From NCBI RefSeq assembly GCF_015670745.1, contig NZ_JADPCH010000003.1:40549-104548 (forward strand): DNA of 64,000 nucleotides, written 5' to 3'. This document shows, in pieces, positions 1 to 33,589 of this stretch (its first letter is position 1; each line of letters begins with the position of its first letter). The translations under genes and the position numbers were made by a program. The DNA is from Collinsella aerofaciens. Lineage in GTDB: Bacteria; Actinomycetota; Coriobacteriia; Coriobacteriales; Coriobacteriaceae. The notes beneath the pieces are model-generated. The model was not told where the DNA came from, did no database searches, and saw only the letters and a list, made by a program, of their open reading frames with translations.

Positions 1-1614
1 AGTGGCATCGGCTGGCAGGGCTGGGACACCCCCTCGGCCTCCGAGGGCGGAACCACCGGCCAGGGGCGCGCCGTCGAGGCCGTGCGCCTGAGGCTCACGG
101 GCTCCCTCGCGAAGGACTACGACGTCTACTACCGCGTCCACGCCTCCAACATCGGCTGGATGGCCTGGGCCAAGGACGGCGGGGAGGCCGGCACCACGGG
201 CTTCGGCAGGAGCGTCGAGGCCGTCCAGGTCAGGCTCGTCAAGAAGGGCGACGCCGCCCCCTCGTCCGACGGCGCCAACGTCGACTACGCCTTCAAGAAG
301 AAGCCCATGTCCCTGACCTACCGCGCCCACGTCTCCAACGTGGGCTGGCAGGGGGCCGTGTCCGACGGCGCGACCGCCGGCACCACCGGCCGCGGCCTCG
401 CCCTCGAGGACCTCAAGCTCTCGCTCGACAGCTCCGACTACTCGGACGGCTCTTCCGTTCAGATCGACGCCCACGTCTCGGGCATCGGCTGGCAGGGCTG
501 GGACACCCCCTCGGCCTCCGAGGGCGGAACCACCGGCCAGGGGCGCGCCGTCGAGGCCGTGCGCCTGAGGCTCACGGGCTCCCTCGCGAAGGACTACGAC
601 GTCTACTACCGCGTCCACGCCTCCAACATCGGCTGGATGGCCTGGGCCAAGGACGGCGAGGAGGCCGGCACCACCGGTATGTCGTGTTCCCTCGAAGCTA
701 TTCAGATTAAGCTCATTAAGAAGGGCGCCTCCCATCCTGATACATCGGGGTATTCCCATCTTGAATTACCTACGGTGACGTATTCCTCTCAGGTGAAAGG
801 TACTTGGCAGAATTCTGTCCCCGCTGGAGAGGTGTCCGGTACAACCGGTCAGGGAATTCCCATCACCGGGTTTTCAGCTAAAACTACTTCATCTGTTGCC
901 GGCGGGATTAATTATCAACTGCATCTTTCGAATGTGGGCTGGACGTCTGGTAAGTCAAACGGAGTGCAGCTTTCGTCTACCGCTGAATCCAATTCGGTTG
1001 AGGCTATTAAAATTTCTCTTTCTGGTGACTTGGCAACCTATTTTGATGTTTGGTACAGGGTCCATGTCGATAACGTCGGCTGGCTTGGTTGGACTAAAAA
1101 TGGCTCCGTTGCCGGTAGTACTGGCTATGGGGCCCATGTCCAAGCTATCCAAGTTCGACTTACGAGGAAGGGCGCCAATGCCCCCGGGAGCACCGTTTCG
1201 CCGTGTTTGCTTGGGGAACCAACCGCGTTTGCAAATCCCATGCAGAAGAAAATTGTAGATCTTGCCCGACAGGTGCCGTCTCCTGGCCCTGGTTTGTGCT
1301 CTGAGTGGATTGCAGACATTTATGAGCGTGCCGGATTTAGGAATGTCCATACAGATGCCTGCGATTACTACTGGGATTACTGTAAATATACCGATTATTC
1401 TCATTTGAAAGTCGGAATGGTCATTGCCGTTCCTTCGCATACGCATACACGCATGGGCAGCATTTACGGTCACGTTTGTCTCTACATCGGTAATAACCAG
1501 GTTATGGATAATGTCGGTCTGATCAGGACGCTCGATATGGCGTACTGGTTGAATTATTATTCCACCTCATATAAGCCAAAATGGGGTTGGTATGACAACG
1601 TGCCGCTTGCATAG
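1..1614 (+). CDS. ChW-repeat surface protein with C-terminal NlpC/P60-like cysteine peptidase domain (5' end missing)
   Basis: The reading frame is open from base 1, so the N-terminus and any signal peptide lie outside the window; 537 codons are visible. About eight ChW-type repeats can be read, with cores such as SNIGWMAW, SNVGWQGA and SGIGWQGW and the trailing GTTG. The last ~140 residues are different: a Cys in GLCSEWIADIYERAG, then YGHVCLYIGNNQVMDN, which fits the Cys/His order of NlpC/P60 or CHAP cell-wall peptidases. The protein is therefore probably a secreted peptidoglycan-active enzyme held on the surface by its repeats. Codon use flips from very GC-rich to AT-richer near base 678. 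It shares its repeat type with the next two genes. Peptidase assignment is moderate, ChW assignment is strong. Confidence 0.75.
   Translation, partial: SGIGWQGWDTPSASEGGTTGQGRAVEAVRLRLTGSLAKDYDVYYRVHASNIGWMAWAKDGGEAGTTGFGRSVEAVQVRLVKKGDAAPSSDGANVDYAFKKKPMSLTYRAHVSNVGWQGAVSDGATAGTTGRGLALEDLKLSLDSSDYSDGSSVQIDAHVSGIGWQGWDTPSASEGGTTGQGRAVEAVRLRLTGSLAKDYDVYYRVHASNIGWMAWAKDGEEAGTTGMSCSLEAIQIKLIKKGASHPDTSGYSHLELPTVTYSSQVKGTWQNSVPAGEVSGTTGQGIPITGFSAKTTSSVAGGINYQLHLSNVGWTSGKSNGVQLSSTAESNSVEAIKISLSGDLATYFDVWYRVHVDNVGWLGWTKNGSVAGSTGYGAHVQAIQVRLTRKGANAPGSTVSPCLLGEPTAFANPMQKKIVDLARQVPSPGPGLCSEWIADIYERAGFRNVHTDACDYYWDYCKYTDYSHLKVGMVIAVPSHTHTRMGSIYGHVCLYIGNNQVMDNVGLIRTLDMAYWLNYYSTSYKPKWGWYDNVPLA
4..181 (+). 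repeat. 178-bp exact direct repeat, copy 1
   Basis: Bases 4-181 are identical to 481-658 (offset 477 bases, or 159 codons). The copy encodes one GIGWQGW and one SNIGWMAW ChW unit. Perfect identity at DNA level, synonymous sites included, points to recent duplication or gene conversion. Confidence 0.95.
481..658 (+). repeat. 178-bp exact direct repeat, copy 2
   Basis: Second copy of the 4-181 repeat, in frame within the same gene. The first difference comes at base 659 (a against g at 182), about 20 bases before the composition change at ~678. Confidence 0.95.
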
Positions 1615-1791: not shown

Positions 1792-3027
1792 ATGAAAAAG
1801 ACGCAACGACTGCTAGCAACGGCAATGACGCCATTACTGATCCTTCAGTGTCTTCTGACGCCCCTTTCCGCCTGGGCTGATTCTTTACCTGTGCAACCGG
1901 AATCCACTGATTATATCGATAGTTCTGCCAGCAGCTTGGAAGACGAGAGCTTTGTCTTAAATGACGAACAGCAGGGGGTTGAAGTCGAGCAGCCGACTGT
2001 GTCAGACAACGATTCTCCCTCATCCGTTTCTAGCGAGCCTGCCTCCAATGCAACTGATTCGGCGAAACCCGAAAATGATGCATCCACTGTGTTTGGCTCT
2101 GTTTCATACCAGACTCATGTACAGGATATTGGCTGGCAAGCTCTCGTTTCAAATGGAATGACGGCGGGCACTACAGGCCGTGCTAAGCGCGTCGAAGCCC
2201 TCAAGATTAATTTGCTTTCACAGGATGGCACCCCGCTGGGGAATGATAGCATTTCGGTCCAATCTCACATTTCCGGGATCGGCTGGGAGTCTCAGCCGGT
2301 GGGTAACGGGCAGACATCTGGAACAGTTGGACAGTCGCGAGCCATCGAGGCGATCAAGCTATCTTTGTCGGGCGGTCTTTCTGATTCGTATGACATTTGG
2401 TATCGCGTTCATTCTGCAAATGTTGGTTGGCTTGGCTGGGCCTCAAATGGTGAGCCTGCTGGAACGCAGGGCTATGCTTGTCAGATCGAAGCTATTCAGA
2501 TTAAGGTGCTTCCAAAAAATGCTCAAGATGCGCCAACGCGAGGCGATGCCTTTAGGGATTATTCTCAGGAACCGCCTACCGTTTCCTATCGATCTCATGT
2601 CTCTAATGTTGGATGGATGGGCGCTGTCGCGGACGGAAAGACATCGGGGGTTATTGACTCAAGAAATGCAATTGAGGCGCTGTCGCTTAGCGTTAATTGG
2701 TATGGCCGCGGAGGCTCCATTTCCTCTCGCGCACATGTGTCTGGTGTCGGTTGGCAAAGCTGGTCTTCAGGTGCTGTTGGCACGACCGGGCAGTCTCGGT
2801 CCATTGAGGCCGTTCAGTTTAAGCTGAACGGCGAGATATCTGCAACTTATGGCATTTGGTACCGTGTGTATGCTTCCAAATTGGGCGGATGGCTGGGCTG
2901 GACGTCTAACGGGTCTCCTGCGGGCTCGGTGGGGAAGGGTGCCGCCATTCAGGGTGTTCAGATTTTATTGGTCGAAAAAAAGCGGCTCTGCTCCCGGCGA
3001 TACGTTGAACCATTTCATTGGAGCTAA
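1792..3027 (+). CDS. ChW-repeat L,D-transpeptidase, N-terminal part (frameshifted)
   Basis: ATG at 1792 follows a good ribosome site (GGGGGAG, 1781-1787). Residues 1-29 form a signal peptide (basic start, hydrophobic core, SAWAD cleavage region), followed by an acidic Ser/Glu-rich linker. Six ChW repeats follow, for example QDIGWQAL, SGIGWESQ, ANVGWLGW and SNVGWMGA. After VEKK the frame runs into an unrelated 15-residue tail and stops at 3027. The normal continuation (SGSAPGDT, like KGGGAPGIT in other repeats) is in the next frame, joined at the A7 run 2975-2981. Read through, the protein would have ~1011 residues with 14 repeats and a YkuD domain. It may be a true mutation, a phase-variable tract, slippage-rescued, or a sequencing error. 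Confidence 0.8.
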   Translation: MKKTQRLLATAMTPLLILQCLLTPLSAWADSLPVQPESTDYIDSSASSLEDESFVLNDEQQGVEVEQPTVSDNDSPSSVSSEPASNATDSAKPENDASTVFGSVSYQTHVQDIGWQALVSNGMTAGTTGRAKRVEALKINLLSQDGTPLGNDSISVQSHISGIGWESQPVGNGQTSGTVGQSRAIEAIKLSLSGGLSDSYDIWYRVHSANVGWLGWASNGEPAGTQGYACQIEAIQIKVLPKNAQDAPTRGDAFRDYSQEPPTVSYRSHVSNVGWMGAVADGKTSGVIDSRNAIEALSLSVNWYGRGGSISSRAHVSGVGWQSWSSGAVGTTGQSRSIEAVQFKLNGEISATYGIWYRVYASKLGGWLGWTSNGSPAGSVGKGAAIQGVQILLVEKKRLCSRRYVEPFHWS

Positions 3028-4828
3028 GGATGTTCTAAGCGGGAGCTCGCTTGGTCTTAACGGTAAAAGCCTGGGCTCCGTACAAGGCAAATCAATCCTA
3101 TTGGGCTCCGAGAACGGCTCTGAACCTTTAACCTCGCTCTCCATTTCGTTTGATAATCAAGAGATTTTAGGCTCAATTGACTATTCCGGCTTTTTTGAAT
3201 TTGGCGGATGGAGCGGTGCTGTTTCTGACGGTGCTGCGCTTAACTCTAAAAACGATGGGCGTGTTCTAAAGGCGGTGAGATTGGCTCTTACTGGAGATTT
3301 GTCTAATGCCTATGACATTTGGTATCGCTGCTTTGACTCCAAAAAAGGATGGCTTGGTTGGGCATGCAATGGCGCGGATGCAGGGGCAACGATATCGGGT
3401 TCATTCCTTAAGACTGTCGAAGTAAGGATTGTCAGTAAAGGCGGCGGCGCTCCCGGAATAACGGACGGAGCATTTGTTTCCGATACTTCCGCCGATTGCG
3501 CTCACGTTGTATATCAGGCTCATTCGGCTAACCGTGGGTGGTCTCCTTCTGTATTTGATGGGCAGGTAACCGGTACAACGGGACAATCGCTTTCTCTTCA
3601 AGCTTTGAATGTGTCGTTGTCCGGTGTGGATGACGATTCTCAAATTGAGGCAAGAGCACATGTTGCCAATATTGGTTGGCAGGAATGGCGATCTTCCGGT
3701 TATATTGGGACCGTTGGACAAGGATTGGCCATTCAGGCTCTTGAGCTGCGCTTAAATGGTTCCCTCGCGAATCAGTATGACATTTACTATCGAGTTCATT
3801 CGGCGGGCTATGGTTGGTTGGGTTGGGCAAAAAACGGCGATTCCGCTGGAACTACCGATCTTAATATCCAGATAGAAGCTGTCCAAATTGAACTTGTTGC
3901 GAAAGGCGGGGATCCAGGCGCGTCGTCTGCGCCCGCGTTTATCACGGCACCAGCCCTAACGCTCCAGGCGCATGTCGCCACGCTTGGTTGGATGAATCCG
4001 GTTGGCAACGGCGATGTTGCGGGCACGACCGGTAGGGCACTTGCGATTGAGGCTCTGAAGCTAAATGTCTCCAGTAGCGTATCGGGCGGTATAGAGTACT
4101 CCGCCCATGTGCAGGATGTCGGTTGGCAAAGCTGGACTTCCAACGGGGATATCGCTGGAACGGTAAGCCGCGCAAAGCGTATCGAGGCTATTAAGATTAG
4201 GCTGACCGGTGGCTTATCGAACTACTTTGATGTCTGGTATCGGGCATATTGCCAAGACTTTGGATGGCTCGATTGGACTTCTAATGGGCAACCTGCGGGC
4301 ACATCCAAGATTGGATATAGGATCGAGTCGGTTCAAGTGACGATTGTGCCTAAGGGTGCTGGAGCTCCCGGTTCAACTGGGCGTCCGTATACCGATCAGC
4401 CTTTGCTGCCTGCCGACATGATGGCCATGCTTAATCGGGCTAATAGATATTCGAGCAATACAAACTGGCTCATTATGGTTGACAGGCAAGCATGCCGCCT
4501 TGGAGTTTTTCGTGGACAGCGCGGGTCGTGGAGTTATGCTCAATACTGGACTTGCTCTGCCGGCGCCCCTAGTACTCCAACGCCTACGGGTGAGTATACC
4601 GTCACCGGCAAGGGCTACTCGTTTGGACATGGGTATACTTGCTACTACTATACGCAGTTTTACGGGGACTACCTGTTCCATTCAATACCGTATTACCAGG
4701 GAACTTTTAATCCCATGGACAGCCGGATGGGAATGCATATTTCACAAGGCTGCGTGCGTTTGCCCATCGATCGCGCTAAATGGATTTGGGATAACGTGCC
4801 TCTTGCTACCAAGGTGGTAATCTACTAG
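2849..4828 (+). CDS. ChW-repeat L,D-transpeptidase (YkuD), C-terminal part (frameshifted)
   Basis: This frame continues the gene that starts at 1792; meaningful sequence begins near 2975, and the ATG at 2849 is only the first in frame. It lacks its own signal peptide and credible start. Eight more ChW repeats are visible (ANRGWSPS, ANIGWQEW, AGYGWLGW, QDVGWQSW and others). The last ~130 residues form a YkuD L,D-transpeptidase domain: WLIMVDRQACRLGVF, a PTPTGEYTV stretch, then FHSIPYYQG and MHISQGCVRL, where Cys (codon 4751-4753) is the expected nucleophile; the usual SHGC reads SQGC. The known family role is 3-3 peptidoglycan cross-linking or protein attachment outside the membrane. Whether the domain is made depends on the A7 junction. 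Confidence 0.8.
   Translation: MAFGTVCMLPNWADGWAGRLTGLLRARWGRVPPFRVFRFYWSKKSGSAPGDTLNHFIGAKDVLSGSSLGLNGKSLGSVQGKSILLGSENGSEPLTSLSISFDNQEILGSIDYSGFFEFGGWSGAVSDGAALNSKNDGRVLKAVRLALTGDLSNAYDIWYRCFDSKKGWLGWACNGADAGATISGSFLKTVEVRIVSKGGGAPGITDGAFVSDTSADCAHVVYQAHSANRGWSPSVFDGQVTGTTGQSLSLQALNVSLSGVDDDSQIEARAHVANIGWQEWRSSGYIGTVGQGLAIQALELRLNGSLANQYDIYYRVHSAGYGWLGWAKNGDSAGTTDLNIQIEAVQIELVAKGGDPGASSAPAFITAPALTLQAHVATLGWMNPVGNGDVAGTTGRALAIEALKLNVSSSVSGGIEYSAHVQDVGWQSWTSNGDIAGTVSRAKRIEAIKIRLTGGLSNYFDVWYRAYCQDFGWLDWTSNGQPAGTSKIGYRIESVQVTIVPKGAGAPGSTGRPYTDQPLLPADMMAMLNRANRYSSNTNWLIMVDRQACRLGVFRGQRGSWSYAQYWTCSAGAPSTPTPTGEYTVTGKGYSFGHGYTCYYYTQFYGDYLFHSIPYYQGTFNPMDSRMGMHISQGCVRLPIDRAKWIWDNVPLATKVVIY
2975..2981 (+). 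other. A7 homopolymer at the frameshift junction
   Basis: Seven A residues in GTCGAAAAAAAGCGG. Losing one A joins the two halves of the ChW/YkuD gene and restores VEKSGSAPGDT. Ribosomal -1 slippage on A AAA AAG would instead enter the third frame and stop within ten codons. Confidence 0.85.
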
Positions 4829-4910: not shown

Positions 4911-5012
4911 GGATAGGGCTTCTATTTCTCCGTTCACCTAATTGGTGGCCTTAATGAAGCTAACTCATTATAGTAGGGTTATTGACGGCTGTCTATCTAG
5001 GAGGCGATTCTC

Positions 5013-8000
5013 TTGAAAAGGCAATTTAGAGCATTTGTTGTTCTGATTTCCTGCTTCATGTCGATGCTGCTTTTGAGCCCTTTGGCTTGTTGGGCGGATC
5101 AAAATATTGGTGCCAACGAATATGAATCCGTTCCAGAGACACAATCCGACTCCTCGGATCAAACTGCTGCTGCAGCCGATGAAACGGCGCCTTCGATTGA
5201 TGTTGCCGTGGAGCCCAAAGAGGCGGCCCCGGACGTCAGCTATAAATCTCACATTTCAGGCATTGGCTGGGAGTCGACGTTTACATCGAATGGTTCGACC
5301 TCTGGCACAACGGGCCAGTCTCGTAGGCTTGAGGCGCTCAGGGTTACTCTCCCTAATTCAGAAGACCTTGGTATCGAATACCGCTCTCATGTTCAAAATG
5401 AAGGCTGGCAGGATTGGGTTTCTAATGGAGCCGTCTCCGGCACAACGGGAAAGGGCCTTCAGATTGAAGCCGTCGAGCTCAAGCTGACGGGTGAAAGAGC
5501 AACTTCTTATGACCTGTATTATCGCGTTCATGCTTCTAATTTCGGTTGGCTTGGATGGGCCTCAAATGGGTCGACTGCGGGAACCACCGGTTGGTCTTAT
5601 GCCGTTGAAGCAATACAGATCGTCATTGTAAAGAAGGGCGAAGCGGCGCCCGGCGATACTGCTGGAGCCTATGTCCCGTATGTCTTTAATTGCTCTCTTT
5701 CTCAGGTTGGGGAGACGACTAAAGTAACCCTGAATATTCCGCAGGTCGAGGATATAAAACGACTCGGTATTGCCGATTCGGTAAAGGTGTCTGGCTTCAT
5801 GTCGTATGGAGGGAAGGTTACCCGATCTGTTTCCAGCACGATTGCATTCGGAGACCTGGGCTCTAGCTCCAGTGAAATTGACTTTAGCGATTATGGTCCG
5901 TTTGACGTTACGTTGCAGTATTTGAAGAACGGAAACATCGTTCATGAGGACCATCAGTCAATTGGCATTTCTGCGAGCGAGTACAACCTTGCCCCTTTGA
6001 GTGCTTCTTTCCCCGTTGTTCTCTATTCGCTATCTTTCTGGGATATCAGCACCTCTTCTGCTGGAACGACCATTCCGTCGATCGTAATGCTCGATCGTCC
6101 AGGTGCCTATAACTGGAACTCGCTTCCATCCGGGATGTATGGTCTTCCGTATCTGACTCATGAGGAAAATGCTTCTAGTTCGAGCTATCAGGCGTTCGCG
6201 GATTATGTCGCTGCTCTCTATAAAATCAACCCCAAGGCAAAGTTCAATCTGTATATCAATGACATCACCTGTTCGTTGATTCATAGGATGATTTACGCCA
6301 ATAAGATTCCCACTGGCCAATACTCCATTCGGCTGTTGTCGGATGGATCTGCCACGTATGTTTTTACCAACGAGGCTTTCGATGTTAAGGATCCAGATTC
6401 TAAGCAAGCGGAGCTGATTGCTTTATGGAACGCTGCTAAGAATAAGGAATACGAAACCGGTGAAGTCTCAATGTCGTATAGCGATTATCACGATCACTGG
6501 GATTCTATGTATGCCGTGCTGAGTATTGAGCCCGGCACTCAGTGGTGGATGACTCGAACGAATCTGTTTACGAGCGGTGACGATAATGCCTTTGCGAATA
6601 AGATCGCATCCGATCCTAACGTTAAGAAGATGAACGTTTCGAGCATGCTTACGAGCCTGCAGAATAGGGGAGAGTACACGGTCCAAGCGTTTAAGGCTCT
6701 GTACAACTTTAACGATGGTTATTTTGATGCGGCTACTCAGCAGGGCAAAAAGGTAATGATGCTGCTTGGAACGTATGTTACTTACGAGCAGAATTTTGAC
6801 GACTATGCCAACTTGACCGAGGTTATCTATGGCGATGACTATTTGTATTATTACAAGGGGCATCCAAACACGCCGACGGGCATGTATCCCCAAAAGCAGG
6901 AACAGCTTGACCGTCTGAGCATTACCGATGTCGATTCTTCCGTTGCTGCAGAGCTGATTCTCTTCTTTAATCCGGAGATCGGTCTGTCTGGATATGGGTC
7001 TAGTACGTATAACTCGGCCAGCGCCGATGCTGCTGGTGGACTTTGGAATTCAACGAAGGCCGAGGCCTTGAAGCCGGGTGCCGTTATCGATTATTCGATT
7101 ATGGATTGGTTTGCTTCTCCGGTTACCGAAGACACGGATGCTGCAATCAGATCCCTTTGCAAGCAGGGTGACTCTTGCTATCTCGTAGAATTTTCGGATT
7201 CCATCCTTGCTTCGGCAAATTACGACTTTGCTATTTATTCGCACAATAGCGGCGCTCTGACTTATTTCAAGAAGGACGAGTCGGGCTACGACGTCGTCAA
7301 GGTGTCACGAGGCTCGCTTGATGTTTTGGCAACTTCGCATGTTTCGAATGACGGTTGGCAGTCGGCTTCCAAGGGCGGAAATGTTTCTGGCACCGTTGGT
7401 CAGTCCAAAGCTGTCGAGGCTATAACTCTCAATCTGCAGAATGCTCCCTACGATGGCAGCTTGGAGTACAGGACGCATGTTTCCGATTACGGTTGGCAAG
7501 ACTATGTGAAAGAGGGAGAAGTCTCCGGTACTACTGGTCAGAGCAAGTCTGTCCAGGCTATCCAAATTCGACTTACTGGTGAGATGGCCAATCGTTATGA
7601 CGTTTACTATCGCGCTCATGTTCAGGACAAGGGGTGGCTTGGCTGGGCCTGCAATGATCAAGTTGCCGGAACGACTGGGTTTGGCTTGAGGCTCGAGGCA
7701 TACCAGGTCGTTTTGGTTGAAAAGGGTTCGCCTGCACCAGGGGATACGAGTCAGCCCTCTATTCAGAAAACTTTTTCAATAAAGGCTCATGTTTCAAACC
7801 TTGGTTGGCAGGAACCTGTTTATGAGGGCATGACGGCGGGCACAACTGGTCGAAATCTTGCTGTTGAGGCGTTGGCTATTAGCAAGCCCGAACTCGGGTA
7901 TTCCGGTAACATCGAATATCGAGCTCATGTTCAGAATATCGGCTGGCAAAAGTGGGTCAAGAACGGCAAGCTGGCCGGCACCACGGGTAAGTCTCTTTCT

Positions 8001-8177
8001 ATTGAAGCTGTAGAAATTAAGCTTACGGGTGATCTCGCCAAGCATTATGACGTTGTCTATAGGGCGCATGTGCAGGGTAAGGGTTGGCTCGATTGGGTTA
8101 AATCGGGCGAGTGCGCAGGTACAACTGGAGAGGCCCTACATATGGAAGCGATTGAGGTTAAGTTGGTTGATAAATAG
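5013..8177 (+). CDS. Secreted ChW-repeat protein with Ig-like and GT80 sialyltransferase-like domains
   Basis: TTG start at 5013 behind AGGAGG (4999-5004); 1054 residues. Residues 1-29 are a signal peptide ending CWAD. Three ChW repeats (about 75-210) are followed by an Ig-like beta region (about 225-325), then a ~420-residue domain (about 330-750), then six ChW repeats. The middle domain matches my recollection of GT80 sialyltransferases such as Pasteurella PmST1: LLSDGSATYV against LYDDGSMEYV, YYYKGHP against YFKGHP, and GYGSSTY against GVASSLY. His617 and Ser663/664 are kept, but the first Asp of the DDG motif, the presumed base, is Ser443. It may be inactive, altered, or used as a binding module. 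No CMP-sialic acid genes are nearby. The fold call is moderate and the activity is unknown. Confidence 0.7.
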   Translation: MKRQFRAFVVLISCFMSMLLLSPLACWADQNIGANEYESVPETQSDSSDQTAAAADETAPSIDVAVEPKEAAPDVSYKSHISGIGWESTFTSNGSTSGTTGQSRRLEALRVTLPNSEDLGIEYRSHVQNEGWQDWVSNGAVSGTTGKGLQIEAVELKLTGERATSYDLYYRVHASNFGWLGWASNGSTAGTTGWSYAVEAIQIVIVKKGEAAPGDTAGAYVPYVFNCSLSQVGETTKVTLNIPQVEDIKRLGIADSVKVSGFMSYGGKVTRSVSSTIAFGDLGSSSSEIDFSDYGPFDVTLQYLKNGNIVHEDHQSIGISASEYNLAPLSASFPVVLYSLSFWDISTSSAGTTIPSIVMLDRPGAYNWNSLPSGMYGLPYLTHEENASSSSYQAFADYVAALYKINPKAKFNLYINDITCSLIHRMIYANKIPTGQYSIRLLSDGSATYVFTNEAFDVKDPDSKQAELIALWNAAKNKEYETGEVSMSYSDYHDHWDSMYAVLSIEPGTQWWMTRTNLFTSGDDNAFANKIASDPNVKKMNVSSMLTSLQNRGEYTVQAFKALYNFNDGYFDAATQQGKKVMMLLGTYVTYEQNFDDYANLTEVIYGDDYLYYYKGHPNTPTGMYPQKQEQLDRLSITDVDSSVAAELILFFNPEIGLSGYGSSTYNSASADAAGGLWNSTKAEALKPGAVIDYSIMDWFASPVTEDTDAAIRSLCKQGDSCYLVEFSDSILASANYDFAIYSHNSGALTYFKKDESGYDVVKVSRGSLDVLATSHVSNDGWQSASKGGNVSGTVGQSKAVEAITLNLQNAPYDGSLEYRTHVSDYGWQDYVKEGEVSGTTGQSKSVQAIQIRLTGEMANRYDVYYRAHVQDKGWLGWACNDQVAGTTGFGLRLEAYQVVLVEKGSPAPGDTSQPSIQKTFSIKAHVSNLGWQEPVYEGMTAGTTGRNLAVEALAISKPELGYSGNIEYRAHVQNIGWQKWVKNGKLAGTTGKSLSIEAVEIKLTGDLAKHYDVVYRAHVQGKGWLDWVKSGECAGTTGEALHMEAIEVKLVDK

Positions 8178-32508: not shown

Positions 32509-33531
32509 CTACTCCATGGTCTCTTGGCAGACAACCTCGCGGATGGCTCGGATGCGGCGCATGGTGTCGTCGAACTGATCGGGGGTGAGGGCCTGGGCGC
32601 CGTCGGACCAGGCGCGGCTCGGCTCGTCGTGGACCTCGATCTCCAGGCCGTTGGCACCACAGGCGGTCGCGGCGAGCGCCATGGGCTCAACGTAGCGGGT
32701 GTAGCCGGTGGCGTGGCTGGGGTCGGCGACGACGGGCAGGTGCGACAGGTGGTGCAGCACCGGCACGGCGTTGAGGTCGAAGGTATTGCGGGTGCGGGTC
32801 TCGAAGGTGCGGATGCCGCGCTCGCACAGGATGACGTTGTCGTTGCCCTCGCTCATGATGTACTCGGCGGCCATGAGCAGCTCATCGATCGTGCCGGACA
32901 TGCCGCGCTTAAGCAAGACCGGAGTCTTGGTCTTGCCGACCTCTTTGAGCAGAGGGAAGTTCTGGGCGTTGCGGGCGCCGATCTGCATGACGTCGATCTT
33001 CTTGTCCAGGAAGACCTGCACGTCGCGTGGGTCCATGATCTCGGTGACGATCGGCATGTCGAGCTCGGCAGACGCCTCGCACAGCAGGTCGAGGCCGGCA
33101 GGGCCCATGCCCTGGTAGGCGTAGGGGGAGGTGCGGGGCTTGTAGGCACCGCCGCGCAGCATCGTGGCGCCGGCGGCCTTTACGCGACGTGCGATGCGGA
33201 TGAGGTTCTCGCCCTCGACGGAGCAGGGACCGGCGATGACCTGGAACTGGTCGCCGCCGATCTTGACGCCGTGGCCGCAGTCGATGACGGAGTCCTCGGG
33301 GTGGAACTTGCGGTTGGCGCGCTTGAACGGCTCGGAGACGCGCTGCACACGCTCGACGACATCCATGGACTCGAGCAGGAACGGGTCGATCTTGGTCGTA
33401 TCGCCCACCAGGCCGATGATCGTCTCGTTCTCGCCGCGCGAGACATCGGTCTTCAGGCCCTTTTTCTCAATCCAGCTGACGATATGGCCGACGGCCTCGT
33501 CGCTGGCGCTCTGCTTTAAAATTGCAATCAT
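32509..33531 (-). CDS. aroF: 3-deoxy-7-phosphoheptulonate synthase (DAHP synthase, AroF/Thermotoga type)
   Basis: The start ATG 33531 (MIAILKQSASDEAVG) has GAGGTGAGAG upstream on the minus strand; 340 residues. Residues 1-~75 form a ferredoxin-like regulatory domain, as in the type I-beta enzymes with N-terminal feedback domains. The barrel follows: VIAGPCSVEG, LRGGAYKPRTSPYAYQG, MQIGARNAQNF, PVLLKRGMSGT and VADPSHATGY. It condenses PEP with erythrose-4-phosphate, the entry step. It is first in the eight-gene aromatic operon, behind a possible attenuator. Confidence 0.95.
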   Translation of the reverse strand: MIAILKQSASDEAVGHIVSWIEKKGLKTDVSRGENETIIGLVGDTTKIDPFLLESMDVVERVQRVSEPFKRANRKFHPEDSVIDCGHGVKIGGDQFQVIAGPCSVEGENLIRIARRVKAAGATMLRGGAYKPRTSPYAYQGMGPAGLDLLCEASAELDMPIVTEIMDPRDVQVFLDKKIDVMQIGARNAQNFPLLKEVGKTKTPVLLKRGMSGTIDELLMAAEYIMSEGNDNVILCERGIRTFETRTRNTFDLNAVPVLHHLSHLPVVADPSHATGYTRYVEPMALAATACGANGLEIEVHDEPSRAWSDGAQALTPDQFDDTMRRIRAIREVVCQETME

Positions 33532-33564
33532 GGTGTGCCTCTCACCTCGATGGATAATCCTTGC

Positions 33565-33589
33565 AAAAACGGCCCGCATCGCGAGCCGT
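33565..33589 (-). terminator. Terminator-like hairpin in the aroF leader (possible attenuator)
   Basis: Reading the minus strand, ACGGCTCGC (33589-33581) pairs with GCGGGCCGT (33577-33569) around a 3-base loop and is followed by TTTTT, some 35 bases before the aroF start. Further upstream, AACGGCCCGC (33652-33643) can pair perfectly with the same 3' arm as an alternative. No leader peptide or T-box was recognised. Confidence 0.5.

What the first reader, a model, noticed from the sequence alone, without database searches (positions are those of the whole stretch)
5680..7270. GT80 sialyltransferase-like domain inside a secreted ChW-repeat protein, with the catalytic Asp replaced
Residues ~330-750 align by eye with Pasteurella PmST1-type GT80 enzymes: LLSDGSATYV vs LYDDGSMEYV, YYYKGHP vs YFKGHP, GYGSSTY vs GVASSLY, and FNDGYF / FNDEV with a following LLGT / FTGT. 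An Ig-like region precedes it, as in some Photobacterium GT80 enzymes. Here it has a signal peptide and is sandwiched between cell-wall ChW repeats in an actinobacterial-type genome. The first Asp of DDG is Ser443, while His617 and Ser663/664 are kept. No CMP-sialate genes are nearby. It could be an inactive glycan-binding module, an enzyme with changed chemistry, or a new extracellular transferase.
Basis: partly seen in the sequence, partly recalled or inferred. Interest (0 to 1): 0.82.

Follow-up and report, generated by a model that had tools for sequence, protein, structure and literature searches.

The report
Secreted sialyltransferase-like surface protein in Collinsella
A gut bacterium exports a wall-attached protein whose core carries the catalytic-site motifs of bacterial enzymes that add sialic acid, although it makes no sialic acid itself; the supposedly missing catalytic acid is in fact present.

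Summary
The protein is real: window 5013-8174, 1054 aa, with a signal peptide, 9 ChW repeats, an Ig-like stretch and a ~450-aa core of no curated family. The core is conserved in 21 of 398 Coriobacteriia genomes, down to 34% identity. The sialyltransferase lead gets independent but modest support. Nine of 18 homologues match Pfam polysialyltransferase and four match PM0188/GT80, all below cut-off. A composite motif taken from the published active sites is in 18/18 homologues and in none of 572 unrelated ORFs.

The headline claim is off by one residue. The catalytic base is the second acid of D/E-D/E-G (PmST1 D141, MhPST E153). Here it is D444, invariant in 18/18; Ser443 sits at the non-base first position. 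K615, H617, E647 and S/T664-665 are also kept, so "catalytic Asp replaced" is wrong.

What remains odd is the location. Every complete homologue appears exported, most carrying ChW, choline-binding or ricin-type modules, and 20 of 21 carriers lack a true NeuB/NeuA. Best reading: an active, wall-tethered transferase using a scavenged CMP-type donor. Donor and acceptor are inferred. The fold could not be tested (AlphaFold pLDDT 50-57), and profile-profile comparison is weak.

The parts
5013..8177 (+). whole gene: secreted ChW / Ig-like / sialyltransferase-like protein, 1054 aa (stop included)
   Evidence: SD AGGAGG at about 4999-5004
5013..5099 (+). signal peptide MKRQFRAFVVLISCFMSMLLLSPLACWA (cleavage site inferred from sequence)
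   Evidence: sequence; no signal-peptide predictor was run
5235..5642 (+). N-terminal block of ChW repeats (about residues 75-210)
   Evidence: PF07538; block limits read from the sequence
5673..5966 (+). Ig-like beta domain (about residues 221-318)
   Evidence: AlphaFold pLDDT about 75-85 over this stretch; Foldseek's GH2 hits with TM 0.12 are not a usable identification
5985..7337 (+). sialyltransferase-like core (about residues 325-775)
   Evidence: conserved family A1; PF07388/PF11477 sub-threshold matches in homologues
6339..6350 (+). S443-D444-G445-S446 = D/E-D/E-G-S/T motif; D444 is the predicted catalytic base (= MhPST E153, PmST1 D141)
6855..6866 (+). K615-G-H617-P618 = KxHP motif, predicted cytidine/phosphate site and acid (= MhPST K289/H291)
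6951..6953 (+). E647, predicted ribose ligand (= MhPST E323, PmST1 E338)
7002..7007 (+). S664-T665, predicted phosphate ligands (= MhPST S339/T340, PmST1 S355/S356)
7341..8174 (+). C-terminal block of ChW repeats (about residues 777-1054)
   Evidence: PF07538; block limits read from the sequence

Best explanation
An exported, cell-wall-tethered glycosyltransferase related to the bacterial GT-B sialyltransferases (GT38/GT52/GT80 type), with its catalytic set intact. ChW repeats (in relatives, choline-binding repeats or ricin-type lectin modules) hold it on surface glycans. The core would bind a cytidine-activated donor through K615/H617/E647/S664/T665, and D444 would deprotonate an acceptor hydroxyl. 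Since nearly all carriers lack NeuA/NeuB, the donor would be scavenged (host or community CMP-sialate), or CMP would act as a recycled cofactor so that sialic acid is moved from host glycans to the bacterial surface, as in the reverse and trans-sialidase reactions of PmST1. Shown: protein, conservation, motif positions, purifying selection, absence of own CMP-sialate genes. Inferred: export, GT-B fold, activity, donor, acceptor, direction.
For: Catalytic-site mapping from MhPST/PmST1 with all key positions invariant or nearly so in 18 homologues at 34-97% identity. Composite motif 18/18, none in 572 unrelated ORFs. PF07388 (best E 3e-4, 9 members) and PF11477 (best 0.0045, 4 members) matches. 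D444-H617 = 173, H617-E647 = 30, E647-S664 = 17 residues, against 170, 27, 17 in PmST1 by its published residue numbers. Purifying selection, dN/dS 0.062 between close relatives. Signal-peptide-like N-termini by eye in the complete homologues, with surface-binding modules in most. In several loci the gene lies beside surface-polysaccharide genes: rhamnose, Galf, LicD, flippase. GT80 enzymes catalyse the back reaction and trans-sialidation (PMC12797295). Scavenged CMP-sialate is used by gonococcus (PMC11078009).
Against: Pfam scores are below curated cut-offs, and the window's own protein has no PF07388/PF11477 hit. hhalign probability is at most 9%. HMM searches between the two families do not separate them cleanly from decoys, though some decoys had been picked for weak matches. 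AlphaFold models are poor and Foldseek finds no GT. The first acid of the motif is lost; E152A in MhPST is 300-fold slower. No PF13088 sialidase was found in this genome, and no extracellular CMP donor is known for this niche. Wall-anchored nucleotide-sugar transferases are not an established kind of enzyme in Gram-positives (own knowledge).
Confidence: 0.45

Rival explanations
1. A pseudo-enzyme: a GT-B sialyltransferase-derived domain that now only binds glycan or nucleotide on the surface, acting as an adhesin or lectin between wall- and glycan-binding modules.
For: Extracellular place without an evident donor; 20 of 21 carriers lack a true NeuB/NeuA; first acid of the motif replaced by Ser/Thr in all 18; combined with lectin and wall modules.
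Against: The base, acid, ribose- and phosphate-binding positions are invariant or nearly so over 18 divergent sequences, which binding alone would not easily demand. In actinobacterial PF07388 proteins the first acid is also often absent (YADGL), so its loss is not a mark of death.
Confidence: 0.25
2. An active enzyme on a different donor or chemistry: a CDP-alditol or other nucleotide donor, or a lipid- or polymer-linked donor, modifying the wall polysaccharide made by the neighbouring genes.
For: The gene lies beside dTDP-rhamnose, Galf-transferase, LicD and ABC-exporter genes in the window and in G154 beside two LicD genes and a CTP_transf_like gene. KxHP-type motifs also occur in other cytidine-nucleotide GT-B enzymes (own knowledge).
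Against: Only sialyltransferase families are hit in the GT-B clan. No close homologue of the G154 cytidylyltransferase in the window's own genome. Cytosolic nucleotide donors are not available outside the cell.
Confidence: 0.2
3. No relation to sialyltransferases: an unrelated secreted fold in which SDG and KGHP are coincidental.
For: Sub-threshold Pfam scores, weak hhalign, no structural hit.
Against: Motif order and spacing match in all 18 members and in none of 572 unrelated ORFs; two sialyltransferase families are hit; the local profile-profile hits fall exactly on SDGSATY/EEGTGTY and KGHP...AE.
Confidence: 0.1

Closest known systems
GT80 (PmST1 / Photobacterium sialyltransferases, Pfam PF11477)
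   Different: SDG in place of DDG; Pfam score below cut-off; wall-binding repeats; Gram-positive export; no sialic acid synthesis in nearly all carriers.
GT38 polysialyltransferases (MhPST/NeuS, Pfam PF07388)
   Same: LVEEGTGTY vs LLSDGSATY; KLHP vs KGHP; E and ST follow at similar spacing; best Pfam match (3e-4).
   Different: Those act on cytoplasmic capsule precursors next to neuB/neuC genes (own knowledge; UTI89 locus); this one appears exported and stands apart from such genes.
Neisseria Lst (GT52) using scavenged CMP-NANA
   Same: A sialyltransferase in an organism that cannot make its donor and takes it from the host (PMC11078009).
PF07388/GT52-like proteins of other Coriobacteriia (L045, L046, L048)
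   Same: Short [ED]-[ED]-G and [KR]xHP motifs.
   Different: Shorter (374-399-aa frames), no signal peptide visible by eye, acid at the first motif position.

Membership tests
GT80 / PF11477 | Pfam score over the gathering threshold (25 bits) | tested here: not met
   No hit for the window protein; 4 homologues hit, best E 0.0045, below cut-off
GT80 / PF11477 | D/E-D/E-G with the base as second acid | tested here: inconclusive
   Base D444 kept in 18/18, first acid is S/T in 18/18 (position from PMC5517516)
GT80 / PF11477 | HP motif His, ribose Glu, two phosphate Ser/Thr in order | tested here: met
   H617, E647, S664, T665; E, H and T in 18/18, S664 in 17/18 (T in one)
GT80 / PF11477 | GT-B fold | tested here: inconclusive
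   Models with pLDDT 57 and 50; Foldseek uninformative
GT80 / PF11477 | CMP-sialate-dependent transfer | not testable with these tools
   needs enzyme assay
GT38 / PF07388 | Pfam score over the gathering threshold (23.3 bits) | tested here: not met
   9 of 18 members hit, best 20.9 bits
GT38 / PF07388 | sialic-acid biosynthesis and capsule genes nearby | tested here: not met
   no true NeuB or NeuA in 20 of 21 carriers; the one positive (G152) has them over 400 kb from the gene
ChW wall-associated proteins (PF07538) | multiple ChW repeats plus signal peptide | tested here: met
   9 repeats; signal peptide by eye

The most novel reading that the evidence does not exclude
A wall-tethered bacterial sialyltransferase working outside the cell: it uses host-derived CMP-sialic acid, or CMP as a recycled cofactor, to move host sialic acid onto the surface of a common human gut bacterium that cannot make sialic acid.
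Probability: 0.15. Interest if true: 0.88.

Novelty: new variant of a known kind. Interest (0 to 1): 0.58.

Why it matters
If active, it would be glycosyl transfer done outside a Gram-positive cell by a nucleotide-sugar-type enzyme, and a possible route for gut Actinobacteria to coat themselves with host-like sialic acid. A one-residue test (D444A) on a well-defined domain can settle it.

Tried and rejected
PDB sequence searches with the window domain, the 18-row profile and two homologues: none relevant. NCBIfam: nothing meaningful. Two AlphaFold jobs, limited by tool rule to 7 close sequences, gave poor models; their Foldseek hits (GH2 enzymes, alpha/beta hydrolases) are disregarded. Viral contigs, plasmids and phages: no relatives. 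A profile search of 396 Actinomycetota genomes found full-length matches only in the family f1; the remaining hits were short chance matches. The NeuB-family hit near the window was rejected as DAHP synthase. HMM comparison with polysialyltransferases against decoys did not separate them. The Neisseria surface-exposed Lst precedent was dropped because a later paper relocates it. The first composite motif missed NeuS because its lower spacing bound was too tight, so the bound was widened after seeing that and the motif re-tested.

Full report
What is there. Window 5013-8177 (+) encodes a 1054-aa protein that starts at TTG behind AGGAGG. It has a clear signal peptide, ChW repeats before and after a central region (nine stretches, PF07538 E 1.6e-133), an Ig-like stretch and a core of about 450 aa with no Pfam or NCBIfam name. 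The genome is a Collinsella: the nearest relative in the public collection, C. aerofaciens MCC370, has an identical core.

The core is a real conserved family. A search of 398 Coriobacteriia genomes found it in 21; alignment A1 holds 18 sequences at 34-97% identity to the window. Between the window and the 97%-identical homologue dN/dS is 0.062, so it is under purifying selection. Its C-terminal company varies: ChW in the window's clade, choline-binding repeats in Senegalimassilia (L004) and one Collinsella (L021), ricin-type lectin domains in a third clade (Pfam for L020 and L025, by eye for the rest), none in two (L027, L028). Every complete homologue has a signal-peptide-like N-terminus by eye; no predictor was available, and L019 is cut by its contig end.

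The sialyltransferase lead. Single-sequence Pfam scans hit PF07388 (alpha-2,8-polysialyltransferase) in 9 of 18 members (best E 3e-4; spanning 92-351 of L004) and PF11477 (PM0188, the GT80 family) in 4 (best 0.0045), all below gathering cut-offs. Members are related, so these are not independent tests. Profile-profile comparison is weak (9% and 7% probability) but its local alignments fall exactly on KGHP...AE against KPHP...AE and SDGSATY against EEGTGTY. A rank test against decoys does not separate the families. Sequence alone therefore suggests but does not prove kinship.

The catalytic residues. The M. haemolytica polysialyltransferase paper (PMC5517516) names E153 as the catalytic base, equivalent to PmST1 D141, with E152 beside it and T155 equivalent to PmST1 S143. 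It also names K289, H291, E323, S339 and T340 as donor-site residues. Counting on the PDB chain printed places EEGT at 152-155, KLHP at 289-292, E at 323 and ST at 339-340. The base is thus the second acid of the motif. In the window protein that is D444; S443 is the first position. D444, G445, K615, H617, P618, E647 and T665 are identical in all 18 sequences; S664 is S in 17 and T in one; the first position is S in 16 and T in 2. Actinobacterial PF07388 proteins often read A-D-G at the same place. The first acid is still missed: E152A is 300-fold slower in MhPST, so an effect on rate is possible.

Chance. The pattern [DE]G[ST]-x(100-200)-KxHP-x(22-36)-E-x(15-18)-[ST][ST] is met by all 18 members, NeuS and MhPST. 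Among 573 other ORFs of at least 250 aa in the fetched DNA one matches, a 413-aa ORF in L066 that I take to be NeuS itself. A slightly tighter version (spacing from 120) gave 0 of 5400 shuffles of the members. The lower bound was widened from 120 to 100 after NeuS failed the first version. The spacings were chosen with the known enzymes in view, so this measures specificity rather than giving a clean P-value.

Donor supply. In this genome the only NeuB-family hit is the DAHP synthase at 32509-33579. CTP_transf_3 hits are GlmU (L052) and a short 28.7-bit hit in a 254-aa frame that I did not identify; a true NeuA (97 bits in G152) scores far higher. No PF13088 sialidase was found. Among the 21 carriers one, G152 (Senegalimassilia), has a true NeuB (286 bits) with a NeuA next to it, over 400 kb from the gene; it also shows that the search would see them. 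A transferase here must take its donor from outside, use something else, or be inactive.

Surroundings. Upstream lie secreted ChW proteins with an NlpC/P60-like end (82-1614; Pfam sub-threshold) and an L,D-transpeptidase. Downstream, read by eye from the sequences, lie glycosyltransferases, dTDP-rhamnose genes, two Galf-transferase-like proteins, LicD, an ABC exporter and UDP-galactopyranose mutase. Similar surface-polysaccharide genes lie within about 10 kb in several other carriers, including two LicD genes and a CTP_transf_like gene in G154.

Mechanism. Best reading (0.45): a wall-tethered extracellular transferase with scavenged CMP-type donor, or CMP-cofactor trans-sialylation; PmST1 is known for a back reaction and trans-sialidation (PMC12797295). 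Outside bacteria, released ST6GAL1 sialylates surfaces extracellularly (abstracts of PMC6713473 and PMC9663294). Rivals: glycan-binding pseudo-enzyme (0.25), other donor or chemistry (0.2), unrelated fold (0.1). The fold was not established: with the 7 sequences allowed, AlphaFold gave pLDDT 57 and 50 and Foldseek results are not usable.

Verdict. A new variant of a known kind if kinship holds: sialyltransferase-type motifs moved to the outside of gut Actinobacteria. Interest 0.58, mainly for the location and the missing donor pathway, not for the claimed loss of the catalytic Asp.

Noticed in passing
window 1792-4828: Two ORFs (ChW, then ChW + L,D-transpeptidase) are one gene in three related C. 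aerofaciens strains by alignment; the window has one extra base in an A-run near 2976 that breaks the frame (real or assembly error).
   Followed up: yes
L067 5684-7967: In a Collinsella relative (G154) the homologue lies beside two LicD genes and a CTP_transf_like (cytidylyltransferase) gene.
   Followed up: partly
L004/L076 (G152, Senegalimassilia): Only carrier of the 21 with true NeuB (L088) and NeuA (L092) genes, far from the homologue; a natural test strain for self-made CMP-nonulosonate.
   Followed up: no
window 82-1614: ChW protein with a C-terminal NlpC/P60-like domain scoring below Pfam cut-off.
   Followed up: no
A1 tree: Slackia (Eggerthellaceae) and Senegalimassilia sequences nest with the C. 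aerofaciens ones, and G154's Collinsella copy is far off, suggesting transfer between families.
   Followed up: partly
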